A DNA stretch of 64,000 bases from NCBI GenBank assembly GCA_032358255.1, contig JAULBX010030928.1:113937-177936 (forward strand), read 5' to 3'. Positions 17,021-61,300 of the stretch are shown here, piece after piece. The notes below the pieces were generated by a model. That model did no database searches. It saw nothing but the letters and a program-made list of their open reading frames with translations, and was not told the origin of the DNA. The translations under genes and the position numbers were made by a program. The stretch's first letter is position 1, and the number at the start of each line of letters is the position of its first letter. Origin of the DNA: Heterotrichella gracilis (taxonomy: Eukaryota > Sar > Xanthophyceae > Tribonematales > Xanthonemataceae).

Positions 17021-20000
17021 ATGGCCAAGCGCAAGTACGCAGCTGACCTGGACTGCGGAGTGAGCATCGAGGCGGAGGTTTTTGAACCGGCCGAAGGCAC
17101 CTGGTGCATACAGGTGGAGGGCACCGTGTCTACAGCAGACGATGCAGCAGCTGGAACGTACGCATCCACCTTTGCATTCCCTTTGCCATTCCAGGCTCGC
17201 TACAGGCGTTATGAAGCAACATTTGGGGTTTAGGGTTTAGGTCGGGGGTTACATTTTGTTGGCATCTTGTCTCTTTGACACCCTATGTGACTTCATCCCA
17301 GCATTCCAAATCCCATTCTTGCTCAAACAACAAACGCCTCCACCACACACACCTGCACACCCTTTGCTACAGGCTGTCAGGCTATGTTATCCACCGACCC
17401 AGGCTGCATGGGGCCAACTTCCTGGTGCGATGGATGCACCCTGCAGCGAGCTAGCAGACGCTGCTTTGGAGCTGTGGGATAGGAATGGGCGCCTGCTGCG
17501 CCACCACAGGTACACACAACTTACGTGACCCACAAGTAAATACCGCCCAGATGGAGACCAGATATGCGGACTCTATGGTTTCGGTAGCTCGTAGCATAGA
17601 TACCGCCCCCTCTCCGCTGTTGGAATGCACCTCTCCATGCCCTTGTGTGGCCACATGGCATGAGGGGGTATTTAATGGTCAGGGGGACACGACGCGGCAG
17701 GTGCAGCTAATCCTCACAGGGGGTAATGAAATATACCATGCGTGTGTGATGAATCGAAAAGTTTCTGAAAATGACAACCAACAAATGCTTGACTAAAGAT
17801 AACTTGTTATCTTCCTATTTCCAATAACTAGATTCTCTACATTCCATTTTCAATGTATTATACTTATCGCTCTCACCCGCACCGTGTCCGTGCACTGTGG
17901 CTCCCAGGGGGATGTTTGGAAGCGAGGTGGACTCGGGAAACATCCTGGTCATAGACCAGATCAGCACCACAGCCAAGCACCGGGGGGCGGGGCTGGAAGG
18001 GGCGGCACTGGAGGCATTTATGATGAAGCTGAATGTGAAAAGGGGAAGTGGAGGTGCTGCGCGGGTGAGAAAACCAGGGTGTGCAGGGGACTTGGGGGGT
18101 GCACGGGTGTGTAGGGCACTTCGTAAATCGGTTGCTGGCATTTCATGAGAGGTATACACCAGCAGCGTACCACTGCAATTTCCAATCAGTCTTATGTCTT
18201 CCCTAATTGTACCCCTTACCCGCACCCCCTCCCCCACCCACAGTTGCTTGACACATCCTTCAATTTTGCCGTCCTGAAGCCATCTGACTACGCCCCTACC
18301 CCGCTGGCCACCTGGCGCGCAGCTGGCTTCCGACGCATTGGGCTCAGCACCTACCTGGGCCACTGCCCCAGGGCCGGCCACCCCTGTCGGGAGGAGGGGG
18401 CTGAAGACCCCCCGCTGCAAGTGGAGGCGCCAGTGGAGGGGCCTGTGTTTGGGCCGATGGCTGAGCTGGCAGAAATGGCCAGGGGGGTGCGCCAGGTTCT
18501 GGAAGAAGAGGCGGGTGGCGGATCTTTCAATAGGGTAGCAAGACCACGGGAGGTGGCTGTGCTGGGGGAGCGGGAATGGGCGCTGGTGGAGGCGGTGCGG
18601 GGTGAGTGATTGGGCCTAGGGTTTAGGGTTTAGGTTTTGAGAGCGGGCGCTGGTGGAGGCGGTGCGGGATGAGTGGGCGGGTGTAGGGTTTGAGGTCCAG
18701 GGATTGGGGTTTAAGATTCAGGCTTTGGGAGCGGACGCTGGTGGAGGCTGTGCTCTGTGAATGGGCGCAGGACGTAAGATTGTTACATACAGTAAATCCA
18801 CTACTTGATTTAAAGATATCGTCCTTGAGGACTGCAGTAGTGTAGCCACATCAGCAGTCTCTTCTTGCAGAGAAGCTTCATCATGGAACCAACCCAGTCC
18901 CTGTCATTGTCACAACTCCACTCTCCTTTGGTGCAGAGGGCAGTAGCGAGGAGGCTGTGCGTGCGCTGGTGCAGCAGGGCGCGCGGGTGGATGAAGCGCA
19001 CGCACTGCACCACGCGGCCACATGCGGCGAGTCCAAGCTGATGGGGGTGCTGATTGAGGCGAGGCCGGATGTGGATGGCAGGTGGGGAAAACCCGAACCC
19101 CCAAATTCTGATACTGAAAACAGCGAGCGCAAGCTGATGAGGGTGCTGATGGAATTGAGGCCACATGTGGATGGCAGGTAAGGGAACCCTAAAACAGAAA
19201 ACCCACTTTAAGCTTATGCTTCAAACAGGGTGGTCGGACGTGGATGGCAGGTGAGGAAAACCGTAAAATAGAGAACCCTTATGGGTGGCCGAAAGTGGAT
19301 GGCGAGTGGCGGAAACCCTAATCAGAAAACCCTTGTGCTTAAAACATAGTGGCCGGAATTGGATGGAAGGTGGCGGAAACCCTAAATTGATGTTTTAAAA
19401 ATAATGAAGAAAGTGAAAAGCGGTACAAGACAAGCAACCTACAGAAAACACAGTGCTTGATTAAATAGTTTATTTCCCTCCCCGCAGGGACGCCAACGGC
19501 TACACCCCCTTGCACCTAGCAGCGGCTACCCGCCACCTGGCCTGCCTCACCACCCTGCTCCATGCGGGGGCAGACCCCACCCTCACCGACCCCAGTGGCC
19601 GCAACCCCCTGGATGGCTTGCTGCTAGGCATGCACAGGACTCGCAACCTGGTCCACATGATTGGGAGGGACTGGGGGGGGCTGGGGGTGGAGGAGATGGG
19701 GACGGTGGCGGTGCTTGTGGGGGCGATGGCCATGCGGGGGGCAAAGTCGGTGCTGGCGCCGCCAATGGTGAGTGGGATGAGGGCGGTGGTAGGGGGATGT
19801 GGCGGGGGTGGAGTTTTGCTGGGGTGTGTTGGGGGAGTGGGGTCATGATGACATATTTGCATGGGTGCTTGTTGCAATTGGCGCCCATGCGTGTGGCATG
19901 TGGTCAACGTTACACTTAATCACTACTAAGCTGGTCATGTGCACTCAGCCCAGTGGCTCCTTCTCTCCTCCCCTCCTTACCCCTCCCACCTCTTTTCCTT

Positions 20001-58300: not shown

Positions 58301-61300
58301 GGGCGTTTTTCTGGCAATGATGGTCATGAGCGAGAGGCAGTTGCGCGGGAAGGGCTTGCCCTGGCCTGTGGTAGGCAGGCCTGCGCAAGGGGCTGAGGGT
58401 TTTAATAGGGTTTCAGGATAAAGGTACTGGCGGCTGCGCGGGAAGGGTTTGACCTGGCCGGAGGGCAGGCAGGCCTGCGCGGGGGGGGAAAAGGGGTTTT
58501 TGATAGGGTTTGAGGATGGAATTGTGCAATAGGGTTTTCTGTGTGCAAGTGGGATTGAGGGTGTGTACACCTGCGTCCCACCTACCAACACCTGTTTCAG
58601 GGTTTAAAAGAATGGCTGCAGCAGCTGAGGCCAGTGGGCCAGGGCGCCATACAGCTCTGTACCCACTGCCCTCCAGCTGCCTGCAAAGTGCAGTTGATGC
58701 ACCTCAGGGGGTGGCAGGTGGCAGCCACTGCGTACAGGACTGGGTGACACCGCTTTCAGGACCCTGTACCCAGCTCAAAAGCACTTTAGGGCTGCAGCCG
58801 GCTGTGCCAGCTTACTTTGCAAGGCCCGGCACAGCAGAGACTGCTTGTAGAAAGAAAGGGCATGGATAATGGCCACTGGCTAGGAGGGCAGAAGCAAGCG
58901 CCCCTAACCTCAGGAAGCCATAGGCGCCCACACCTCAACCCCCTCTGGAGTGGGTGGAGTGACCCAGTGAGAGACCACACTTTTGCCCAAGACTCTCGAG
59001 CTATATCCCCACCAGGGACGAACACAATGCGAAGAGGGTGTCTGACATTTGAAGACTCTCGAGGATATCTGACATTCGAAGACTCTCGAGCTATATCACC
59101 ACCAGGGACCAACACATTGCGAAGAGGATTTCTGACATTCGAAGTTTCCACCTCGCTTGTTCCGAGCCCTTCATTCCGTCGTCGAAAAAAAGGTGGTTGA
59201 ACGCGAGTACAGTAAATTTGGCCGATTCGTCACAACTTTTGTAAACAGGTCGTCGTACACGGAACGCAAAATCGCGCGTCGGGGGGACAGTAACTTTGCC
59301 TACTTCCGTCGAATTTTACTAGGGTGCGTCGTCGGGGACCGGAACGCGCGTCAAGAACTGCAAGTTGGCCAGTAAATTGGCCCACTTTCCTCAAAACTTA
59401 GTGGGGTGCGTCGTCGCGGACCGGAACGCGCGTCACGAACTGCAAGTTGTCCAGTAAATTGGCCCACTTTCCTCAAAACGTACTGGGGTGCGTCGTCGGG
59501 GACCGGAACGCGCGTCACGAACTGCAAGTTGGCCAGTAAATTGGCCGACATTCCTTCAAACTTACTAGGTGCGCCGTCGGGGGACCGTCGGGGACCGGAC
59601 CGCGCGAAGCGAAACCAGTAAAGTGGCCCACTTTCGTGCAAACTTACTGAGTGCGTCATCGGGGACCTAAACGTGCGTCAACGGAACAGTAAGTTAGCCC
59701 ACTTTCGTGCAAACTTACATGCAACCACGTCACCTTCGGAAGCGATTCACGCTGCAACCGACTCACAACGACGCTAACGATACCCCCGGATGAAAACGCG
59801 TAAAGGTGCTATGGTGCACCGCCTTGATCCCGAACCAAATCGCTGCATACATCCCTGTCCCCCCATTTCACCTCCCCACCTGCTGCCACACATCCCCGCC
59901 CCTCCCTCTCACCCACCCACCTTGATGACTTCACTGGACAGCGGGTGCATGGCCCCGGTTGCCTTCATGTCGTGCCCCGCCCCCGCCTCCTTGCTGGTGC
60001 GGTATCGGCGGCTCAAAGCAGCCTCCACCCGCCGCTTGATGCGGGAGAAGCTGGAGCCCTACACAAGGGTTTCGAGGGGGGAACGGAGTCAGGGGTGGGG
60101 CGCAGGGGGAAGAGGTGGTGGCGAGGGTGGTACGTGCAAAGCACGGACATGTTGTTGCAGGTGTGGGGGCAGCTACTCGCAGAGTCTGGCGGAGCAAGGT
60201 TGTGAGTATCAAACCCTTTGCAAGGCGTTCAGCACCCTAAGGGGTGTATTGTAAGCCTTGCAAGAGTATCAGCCCTGCAAGTGCTCCACGCAGAAGCTGG
60301 CAAGGGCATCTCTAAACAAGCCGCCCCCCACACCCCCTCCGCACCCACGCACCACCATTCACAACACACCCACACCACAGCTGCACCACCCCCAGCCTCC
60401 CCATCCACCCACCTGCACCCCCCCCTCCGCCAGCTCCCCAGCCACCTCCCCCATGCCAGCAAAGTCCGCACTGGCAGACAGCGCCCTCCCCTCCGCACCC
60501 GCAAGCAGACGCTCCCGCTGCGCCTCCGCCCTGTTGCACAAGAGATAATCACAATCAACCACAGTGACAAGCATGGCACAACCACAATCACAGGTCACTC
60601 TCAGTCACAACAGAAACACCTATAAAGACCAGCCACAAAAACTTCCACGAGAAAGGCGCTACACGCCGTGAACCAGCAAATGCCACAGCATTGTGATGCA
60701 CTACACCAAACCCCAGTTGTGACCCTAAACCCTAAACCCCAAACCCTTTACCTGGGCACCAGGTACAGGTCGTCCATGCCACAGCATTGCGATCAACTAC
60801 CCCAGTCGTGATCCTAAACCCTAAACCCCAGTGTTGAACCTAAACCCTAACCCCAAACCCTTTACCTTGGCACCAGGTACAGGTCGTCCATGCCACAGCT
60901 GAACCCTTGCAGCTGCAGGTATGCGGTGAGCAGGCGCGACAGGCAGTTGAGTAGCAGGCCGGCGGTCTGGGGACCATACAGCTCCTGCGGGGGGAGATGG
61001 GAACAAGAGGGTGGGTCATGGGTGGGTGGGTGCAAGAGCAGGGTTGTGAGAAAGTGAGTTTCCCCACAAGAGGGGTTGCAATGTGCAGGAGTGTGGTCCT
61101 TGATTTTACATATTCATGTCCAGCAAAATGGATGCCAGCTCAACTTTAAGGTTTTCACGCCGACCCTGCCAAGGGTTATTCTCAAACCCTCAATAGCCCA
61201 TAAATAGCAAGCTGCGCCTTGGCCAGGTACCCTTGCACCATGAAGCACTGGCCCTTCCTACTGCCCCTGGCTCCAGCAGCAAAGTGTTCACCCAACCCTA

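What the first reader, a model, noticed from the sequence alone, without database searches (positions are those of the whole stretch)
18568..61243. Splice-junction echoes: introns across many genes carry decaying copies of their own exon edges
At more than 20 introns in genes on both strands, 20 to 100 bp of the adjoining exon plus its donor or acceptor is repeated one to four times inside the intron, each copy more diverged with distance. Clear sets: 18641-18765, 19124-19378, 25675-25920, 26301-26665, 30329-30363, 30941-31043, 39832-39947, 40797-40905, 43889-43925, 44707-44790, 45152-45220, 46333-46375, 46844-46926, 47933-48018, 57302-57331, 57791-57853, 58324-58490, 60745-60787. Copies are non-coding (stop codons, lost cysteines) yet often keep an intact splice site. 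Ordinary tandem duplication would not be expected to centre so regularly on splice junctions. It suggests a recurrent process that duplicates DNA at exon-intron borders and lengthens introns. Inferred mechanisms include break repair with templated insertion, or R-loop-associated breaks at junctions. The spare splice sites could also feed alternative splicing.
Basis: seen in the sequence. Interest (0 to 1): 0.88.

Follow-up and report, generated by a model that had tools for sequence, protein, structure and literature searches.

The report
Telomere-filled break scars at intron edges
In this green-alga genome many introns hold spare, decaying copies of their own exon edges, and the DNA between the copies is rich in the alga's own telomere repeat, which suggests that staggered DNA breaks were patched with telomere sequence and left extra DNA in introns.

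Summary
In detail: all 18 listed intervals hold direct copies of neighbouring sequence (15 matched to an exon or exon edge, the other three). With my own gene models, an exon edge is echoed inside its own intron at 43 of 241 donors and 31 of 241 acceptors, against 0 of 707 and 0 of 711 unrelated edges; inverted copies 1 and 1.

In 114 of 137 adjacent events a filler of >=10 bp separates them. Intronic filler is enriched in TTTAGGG, the alga's own telomere repeat (12% of bases against 3% at random intron positions, 0 of 1000 placements). Conversely, 67 of 195 intronic telomeric clusters are flanked by direct repeats, against about 7% of control positions.

Best reading: staggered breaks whose overhangs were filled in (giving the direct repeat) and joined through telomeric filler. 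These survive where splicing hides them. Telomerase and CST action is inferred, and strand order gives it little support. The junction bias is largely what geometry, selection and decay predict; a residue remains. Intron gain fits 1 of 250 introns. Known kinds combined, at unusual scale.

The parts
1340..1391 (+). exon edge + donor of MAPEG gene (copy 1)
   Evidence: MAPEG Pfam
1392..1428 (+). filler with telomeric motif
1429..1480 (+). echo of 1340-1391, 90% identical, donor GT kept
5314..5370 (-). exon segment echoed at 5593-5653 in the intron
18578..18608 (+). exon edge + donor (copy 1)
18609..18644 (+). telomeric filler
18645..18675 (+). echo 1, 97% identical, donor GT lost to AT
18724..18767 (+). 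echo 2 after a second telomeric filler 18680-18723
19027..19083 (+). exon edge + donor, echoed at 19123-19179, 19232-19262, 19287-19346, 19351-19385
25682..25746 (+). echo of exon 26019-26083
25793..25887 (+). echo of acceptor + exon 25949-26044
26119..26208 (+). exon edge + donor, echoed at 26306-26395 and 26478-26512
30323..30363 (-). echo of donor edge 30411-30451, 41 of 41 identical
30364..30410 (-). 47 bp filler, telomeric in both orientations, not duplicated
30411..30451 (-). true exon edge + donor of the RWP-RK gene
   Evidence: RWP-RK
30937..31129 (-). 79 bp donor-edge repeat array
39742..39950 (-). 84 bp abutting array: acceptor + exon start, 2.5 copies, 97%
40735..40897 (-). acceptor edge and two echoes with telomeric filler 40776-40793
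43884..43921 (+). echo of acceptor edge 44011-44048
44527..44605 (+). exon end echoed at 44710-44788
45031..45131 (+). exon edge + donor, echoed at 45154-45261; filler 45101-45147 telomeric
46323..46408 (+). donor edge, homologous in exact register to acceptor edge 46518-46604: candidate intron gain (intron 46337-46531)
46685..46741 (+). exon end echoed at 46871-46927
47845..47914 (+). exon edge + donor, echoed at 47968-48037; filler 47896-47967 telomeric
48198..48226 (+). echo of acceptor edge 48292-48320, 29 of 29 identical
52238..52307 (-). copy flanking telomeric filler 52308-52326; partner 52327-52396
57285..57349 (-). echo of donor edge 57371-57435; telomeric filler between
57600..57693 (-). 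acceptor edge, echoed at 57787-57880
58198..58298 (-). RPA1 acceptor edge (true exon taken to end at 58264), echoed at 58315-58413 and 58429-58517
60728..60785 (-). echo of donor edge 60842-60899, 93%; telomeric filler 60786-60861

Best explanation
Each echo is one arm of an insertion scar of the form L-A-F-A'-R, where the ancestor was L-A-R. A staggered break (or two nearby nicks on opposite strands) leaves overhangs of roughly 20-100 nt. Both overhangs are filled in, so A is doubled in direct orientation, and the ends are joined through filler F that is often rich in the alga's telomere repeat. The simplest source of such filler is telomerase extending a 3' end, with fill-in by the telomeric CST-polymerase alpha-primase machinery. 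Scars inside exons are removed by selection. Scars within introns or across a splice junction survive, because splicing from the outermost donor or acceptor removes the extra DNA. The functional exon copy stays fixed while the intronic copy decays. Shown: direct repeats, telomeric enrichment of the filler, the reverse association, near-absence of inverted copies. Inferred: breaks, fill-in, telomerase, CST, order of events, intron growth.
For: Fillers: 84 intronic fillers, telomeric fraction 0.119 against 0.031 (sd 0.0085), 0/1000; 44 of 84 hold a motif against 17 expected. Same for the 70 exon-touching fillers, in the window and outside it separately. Reverse test: 67/195 intronic telomeric clusters (41/92 with >=12 telomeric bases) flanked by direct repeats against 6.5-7.3% of controls; inverted flanks 0/195; intergenic 4/50 against 1.7%. 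Telomeric content of filler tends to rise with copy identity (0.118, 0.194, 0.176, 0.318; rho 0.25, p 0.02; n 84). The motif is the genome's own telomere repeat: TTTAGGG dimer 5,629 against 5 reversed; (TTTAGGG)6 opens 7 of the 16 contigs that hold it; TTTTAGGG dimer 107 (control 1), TTAGGG type 17 (control 7). 35 of 46 adjacent high-identity events have a filler of >=10 bp, 10 abut. 30323-30451 is 41/41 identical around 47 unrelated bp. A telomerase RNA-binding domain is encoded. Precedents: staggered-break target duplication at a few horse telomeric insertions (PMC7215372, passages); CST-polymerase alpha tandem duplications (PMC8355091, abstract, introduction, discussion).
Against: Telomerase at 3' ends predicts G-strand motif beside the left copy and C-strand beside the right. 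The trend is in that direction but weak and depends on the gap allowed: concordant:discordant 20:11, 22:14, 30:18, 36:19 at 2, 3, 5, 8 bp (p 0.15, 0.24, 0.11, 0.03) and 48:38 at 20 bp (p 0.33). Healing of both ends predicts G then C; neighbouring opposite-strand blocks within 30 bp are 7 against 7, and within 300 bp 18 G-C against 32 C-G, the wrong way. 40 of 84 fillers hold no exact motif, and fillers are impure even between identical copies. Motif density does not clearly rise with intron length. No empty-site allele or relative was available. Several loci have few or no events (L005, L006, L016 none, L009 one).
Confidence: 0.5

Rival explanations
1. Telomere-like motifs already in introns act as fragile sites (G-quadruplex or protein-bound). 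Forks or transcription stall there and local template switching copies nearby DNA; the motif is cause, not product.
For: Strong association of motif and duplication; strand-order tests give telomerase little or no support.
Against: Does not explain how 5,629 interstitial dimers arose. Telomeric content of fillers tends to rise with youth, as expected of material inserted with the copy. Near-absence of inverted copies.
Confidence: 0.22
2. Ordinary tandem duplication by slippage or unequal exchange, followed by decay; junction centring is only selection and geometry, and the telomeric link is incidental.
For: Some arrays abut (39742-39950, 59285-59664); 10 of 46 adjacent high-identity events abut. 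A neutral-with-splicing simulation yields an exon-touching share of up to 0.57.
Against: 35 of 46 adjacent high-identity events have filler; filler telomeric enrichment 0/1000.
Confidence: 0.13
3. A mobile or introner-like element with target-site duplications whose body decays.
For: Direct repeats flank an insert.
Against: Fillers share only the telomeric motif by inspection. One 7.4 kb gene with its introns finds only itself and simple-repeat matches in the genome (112 matches; 40 of 140 candidates scored). Copy lengths vary widely (IQR 37-66).
Confidence: 0.06
4. Intron birth: the exon-edge repeats are relics of intron gain by duplication of an exonic AG|GT.
For: Intron 46337-46531: donor and acceptor surroundings match 33 of 49 non-consensus columns in exact register.
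Against: 1 of 250 introns stands out; the next scores 24, shifted registers reach 29, and mean scores in exact and shifted register are alike (12.5 against 12.0-13.0).
Confidence: 0.05

Closest known systems
Short interstitial telomeric sequences inserted at double-strand breaks in primates, rodents, horse (PMC2246262, PMC7215372; passages read)
   Same: Short runs of the organism's own telomere repeat away from ends; some with direct target duplication, ascribed in horse to staggered breaks.
   Different: In horse 3 of 66 loci have a plain duplication (a few more are complex); here 67 of 195 intronic clusters are flanked by direct repeats, inverted ones 0 of 195, and the copies often carry exon edges.
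Small tandem duplications by CST-guided polymerase alpha-primase fill-in at 3' overhang breaks (PMC8355091; abstract, introduction, discussion read)
   Same: Direct short duplications; machinery shared with telomeres.
   Different: Here 114 of 137 adjacent events have a filler of >=10 bp, often telomeric, rather than abutting copies.
Telo boxes in plant genes with a proposed telomerase-at-nicks model (PMC3022908; passages read)
   Same: Same AAACCCTA-type motif in genes; proposed telomerase addition at 3' ends opened during transcription.
   Different: Plant telo boxes are described as concentrated in 5' regions and less frequent in Arabidopsis CDS and introns; here introns are the richest of three classes. 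I saw no mention of flanking duplications in the passages read.
Intron gain by break repair with flanking direct repeats (Drosophila PMC3296678, passages; Daphnia, Li 2009, cited there, not held)
   Same: Filler between direct repeats at intron borders.
   Different: Here the repeats lie in existing introns; 1 of 250 looks like a gain.
Patch-mediated or paired-nick duplications in rice and Arabidopsis (recalled: Vaughn and Bennetzen 2014; Schiml 2016; not read)
   Same: Direct repeats of 20-100 bp at paired nicks.
   Different: Telomeric filler is not part of that description as I recall it.

Membership tests
Short interstitial telomeric sequence inserted at a break | organism's own telomere repeat, away from chromosome ends | tested here: met
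Short interstitial telomeric sequence inserted at a break | inserted in one step relative to an ITS-less orthologue | not testable with these tools
   no relatives held; the one gene searched had no second copy
Short interstitial telomeric sequence inserted at a break | flank changes typical of break repair (here direct target duplication) | tested here: met
   67/195 against about 7% control; the other 128 show none at this score
Short interstitial telomeric sequence inserted at a break | other telomerase-RNA sequence in inserts | not tested
   telomerase RNA of this alga not known to me
Telomerase extension of 3' ends | G-strand motif beside left copy, C-strand beside right | tested here: inconclusive
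   weak trend; both-ends order 18 against 32 the wrong way within 300 bp
CST/polymerase alpha small tandem duplication | direct orientation, mostly under 100 bp | tested here: met
CST/polymerase alpha small tandem duplication | abutting copies | tested here: not met
   10 of 46 adjacent high-identity events abut, 35 have filler >=10 bp
CST/polymerase alpha small tandem duplication | dependence on CST, polymerase alpha, Ku | not testable with these tools
   needs mutants
Polymerase-theta templated insertion | direct and inverted local copies (as recalled) | tested here: not met
   inverted 1 and 1 of 241, against 43 and 31 direct; 0/195
Introner or transposon insertion | homologous element bodies at many sites | tested here: not met
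   one 7.4 kb gene only
Intron gain by tandem genomic duplication | donor and acceptor at homologous positions of the repeat | tested here: not met
   met by 1 of 250 introns

The most novel reading that the evidence does not exclude
In this alga, telomere-maintenance enzymes (telomerase with CST-polymerase alpha-primase) act routinely on staggered breaks in genes. Each repair leaves a direct repeat plus telomere-repeat filler. This is a main engine of intron growth, with some preference for exon-intron borders beyond what selection explains.
Probability: 0.26. Interest if true: 0.82.

Novelty: new variant of a known kind. Interest (0 to 1): 0.65.

Why it matters
How introns lengthen is mostly unexplained, and a role of telomerase in break repair is hard to see in genomes. 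Here thousands of interstitial telomere repeats, many framed by direct repeats whose exon copy is held fixed by selection, form a record of single repair events. With sister genomes or telomerase and CST mutants, both questions become directly testable in a small-genome alga.

Tried and rejected
Both-ends telomerase healing (G block then C block): 7 against 7 within 30 bp and 18 against 32, the wrong way, within 300 bp. G-left/C-right adjacency: weak trend only, six thresholds tried. Intron gain as the general cause: 1 of 250. Dispersed element: no homologous bodies for the one gene searched. Allelic or paralogous empty site: none for that gene. Sense bias of the motif in introns: little (1244 sense, 1402 antisense bases). 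'Introns with the motif are longer' as proof of growth: dropped as confounded by length.

My first gene-finder settings over-split exons and were replaced. The first self-BLAST timed out and one script failed on a module path. Nine echo mini-exons were converted to intron by rule, and one RPA1 exon end was set by hand (used). One search found 170 pairs; 157 were non-redundant (offset <=350) and 137 adjacent. Low-complexity and short-period pairs and offsets over 400 were dropped before that. Exon-exon pairs (4, of them 2 at >=85%) were left out of the junction shares. L004 (bacterial) and L001 were not used for gene models; L018 duplicates the window; L019-L030 were used only.

Species not identified: a green alga (43 light-harvesting matches). 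Its CP26 scores highest with 7pi0, 9is4 and 6kac and lower with 8bd3; from recall these are Dunaliella (7pi0), Chlamydomonas (6kac) and Chlorella ohadii (8bd3), with 9is4 not recalled.

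Full report
WHAT THE WINDOW IS. The window is the last 64 kb of contig C835 of a 68.5 Mb, 903-contig genome. It is a green alga: 43 matches to the chlorophyll a/b-binding family. 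The assembly also holds at least one bacterial-looking stretch (L004, 37% GC), which I left out of the gene models. No relatives are held and the genome is not given as a file, so I worked on the window plus 15 further loci (210 kb with gene models). Only one gene was searched against the whole genome as DNA; beyond that I have motif counts and two family searches.

GENE MODELS. I wrote a hidden-Markov gene finder trained on these loci. After six rounds it gives consistent splice signals (CAG|GTRAG, TGCAG|G), median intron 286 bp and median exon 164 bp. Pfam supports three of three window genes tried (MAPEG and RWP-RK above cut-off; MIZ and PHD zinc fingers below the curated cut-off). PDB homologues support RNA polymerase I subunit RPA1. 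Other gene names in my notes are by eye. Echoes sometimes fooled the finder; nine mini-exons and one RPA1 exon end were corrected, which left 266 introns.

There are 100 local self-matches at score >=18 in the window against none in four shuffles. In the sample, 43 of 241 donor edges and 31 of 241 acceptor edges are echoed in their own intron at score >=18. Unrelated edges give 0 of 707 and 0 of 711, and the inverted own edge 1 and 1. The echo rate of exonic 40-bp tiles falls with distance from the junction: 60/470, 22/433, 8/366, 1/267, 2/183, 0/125, 0/85, so copies reach about 100 bp into exons.

WHAT LIES BETWEEN THE COPIES. The most enriched 7-mers of the window are rotations of the plant-type telomere repeat (TAGGGTT 99 against 7.8 expected). 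Among the 20 rotation classes of that composition, TTTAGGG covers 28.5 bases per kb of intron and no other class exceeds 10.6. Genome-wide the dimer occurs 5,629 times against 5 for the reversed control. Six-fold runs open 7 of the 16 contigs that hold them, so it is the telomere repeat of this genome. Other telomere types are rare: TTTTAGGG dimer 107, TTAGGG type 17. With the motif masked before looking for repeats, telomeric bases per kb are 112 in intron fillers, 43 in intronic copies, 21 in other intron, 9 in other intergenic DNA and 5 in exons. Random placement never reaches the filler value (0 of 1000). The same holds for exon-touching events only, inside the window (33 fillers), outside it (37) and without the richest locus L008 (29). 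Read the other way, 67 of 195 intronic telomeric clusters are flanked by direct repeats against 6.5-7.3% of control positions; inverted flanks 0 of 195. The other 128 clusters show no such repeat at this score. Median copy is 50 bp and median filler 57 bp (67 distinct cases). Fillers of >=10 bp separate the copies in 114 of 137 adjacent events and in 35 of 46 at >=88% identity; 10 of those 46 abut. The neatest case is 30323-30451: 41 identical bases, 47 bases of mixed-orientation telomeric filler, then the same 41 bases, of which the right-hand set is the exon edge with its donor.

HOW IT PROBABLY WORKS. The form L-A-F-A-R with A direct is what fill-in of a staggered break followed by end joining gives. 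Simple tandem duplication does not give identical copies around unrelated filler, and polymerase-theta copying should also give inverted copies (recalled expectation). CST-polymerase alpha-primase, the telomere fill-in machine, makes small tandem duplications at 3'-overhang breaks in mammalian cells (PMC8355091: abstract, introduction and discussion read). Telomerase at the same 3' ends would supply TTTAGGG filler. Horse telomeric insertions show direct target duplications at a few loci, ascribed by the authors to staggered breaks (3 of 66 plain; PMC7215372, passages). Gaspin et al. proposed telomerase action at ends opened during transcription to explain plant telo boxes (PMC3022908, passages). 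The telomerase step is the weakest: the predicted strand order beside the copies is only a trend, and opposite-strand neighbours show no order within 30 bp and the opposite order within 300 bp (18 against 32). Telomeric content rising with copy identity fits insertion of telomeric DNA with the duplication, though the bins are not monotonic and it is one test at p 0.02.

DO INTRONS GROW? The structure implies that each event adds one copy plus filler. Introns with motif or events are longer, but that is confounded by length: motif density per kb is 23.7, 22.6, 35.1, 27.6 and 28.8 in rising length bins. In introns of 200-500 bp, 74% of 47 with events hold the motif against 36% of 120 without, which supports the association, not growth.

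WHY THE JUNCTIONS. An insertion that doubles an exon edge is hidden if the outermost splice site is used, one inside an exon is not, and the exon copy does not decay. Simulation of uniform insertion with these rules gives exon-touching shares of 0.17-0.57 for copies of 30-120 bp, against 70 of 98 observed and 35 of 46 at >=85% identity. Those simulations use present intron lengths. Binned by pre-insertion length, observed shares are 9/9, 19/22, 30/45 and 13/23, against expectations for 40-100 bp copies of 0.90-1.00, 0.34-0.69, 0.22-0.47 and 0.11-0.26 before correction for detection. A preference for borders beyond geometry is therefore likely, but its size depends on the unknown true copy length. 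Intergenic DNA has fewer events per kb (0.10-0.30) than introns (46 intron-only events in about 93 kb), so transcribed DNA may be favoured. I could not separate this from annotation limits. Retained splice dinucleotides (45/51 against 36-38 expected) may reflect alignment bias. Of 45 intact spare sites, 41 would break the frame or add a stop. The four in-frame ones are window 19081, 53120 and 54301 and one in L014.

LITERATURE. Ten searches listed no paper whose title or shown abstract describes exon-edge copies around telomeric filler in introns. Full texts were not read for that, and the library lacks most subscription journals, so this is not proof of novelty.

VERDICT. Real, found in the window and in 12 of the 15 other sampled loci when every event class is counted, and uneven in density. 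Best read as scars of staggered-break repair with telomeric filler. It is a new variant that joins two known kinds.

Noticed in passing
L004 (G000:C100:30001-40000): 37% GC, long ORFs including HipA-like and phage-integrase-like proteins by eye: looks like a bacterial contaminant contig in the algal assembly.
   Followed up: partly
window 59285-59718: An 82 bp tandem array of about 3.7 copies in an RPA1 intron, unlike the other scars.
   Followed up: no
window 28292-28655: Several diverged units of about 70 bp in an intergenic stretch between two genes.
   Followed up: no
L005, L006, L009, L015, L016 compared with window, L008, L014: Event density is very uneven between loci, even where introns are long (L009 has one event in 6.3 kb of intron); cause unknown.
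   Followed up: partly
window 46337-46531: Intron whose donor and acceptor surroundings are homologous in exact register: a candidate for an intron gain.
   Followed up: partly
window 39742-39950: 84 bp array in which two copies could be spliced as 24 nt in-frame mini-exons with AG acceptors and GC donors; possible cassette exons.
   Followed up: partly
G000:C626:23723-24513: Telomerase RNA-binding domain encoded in two pieces.
   Followed up: no
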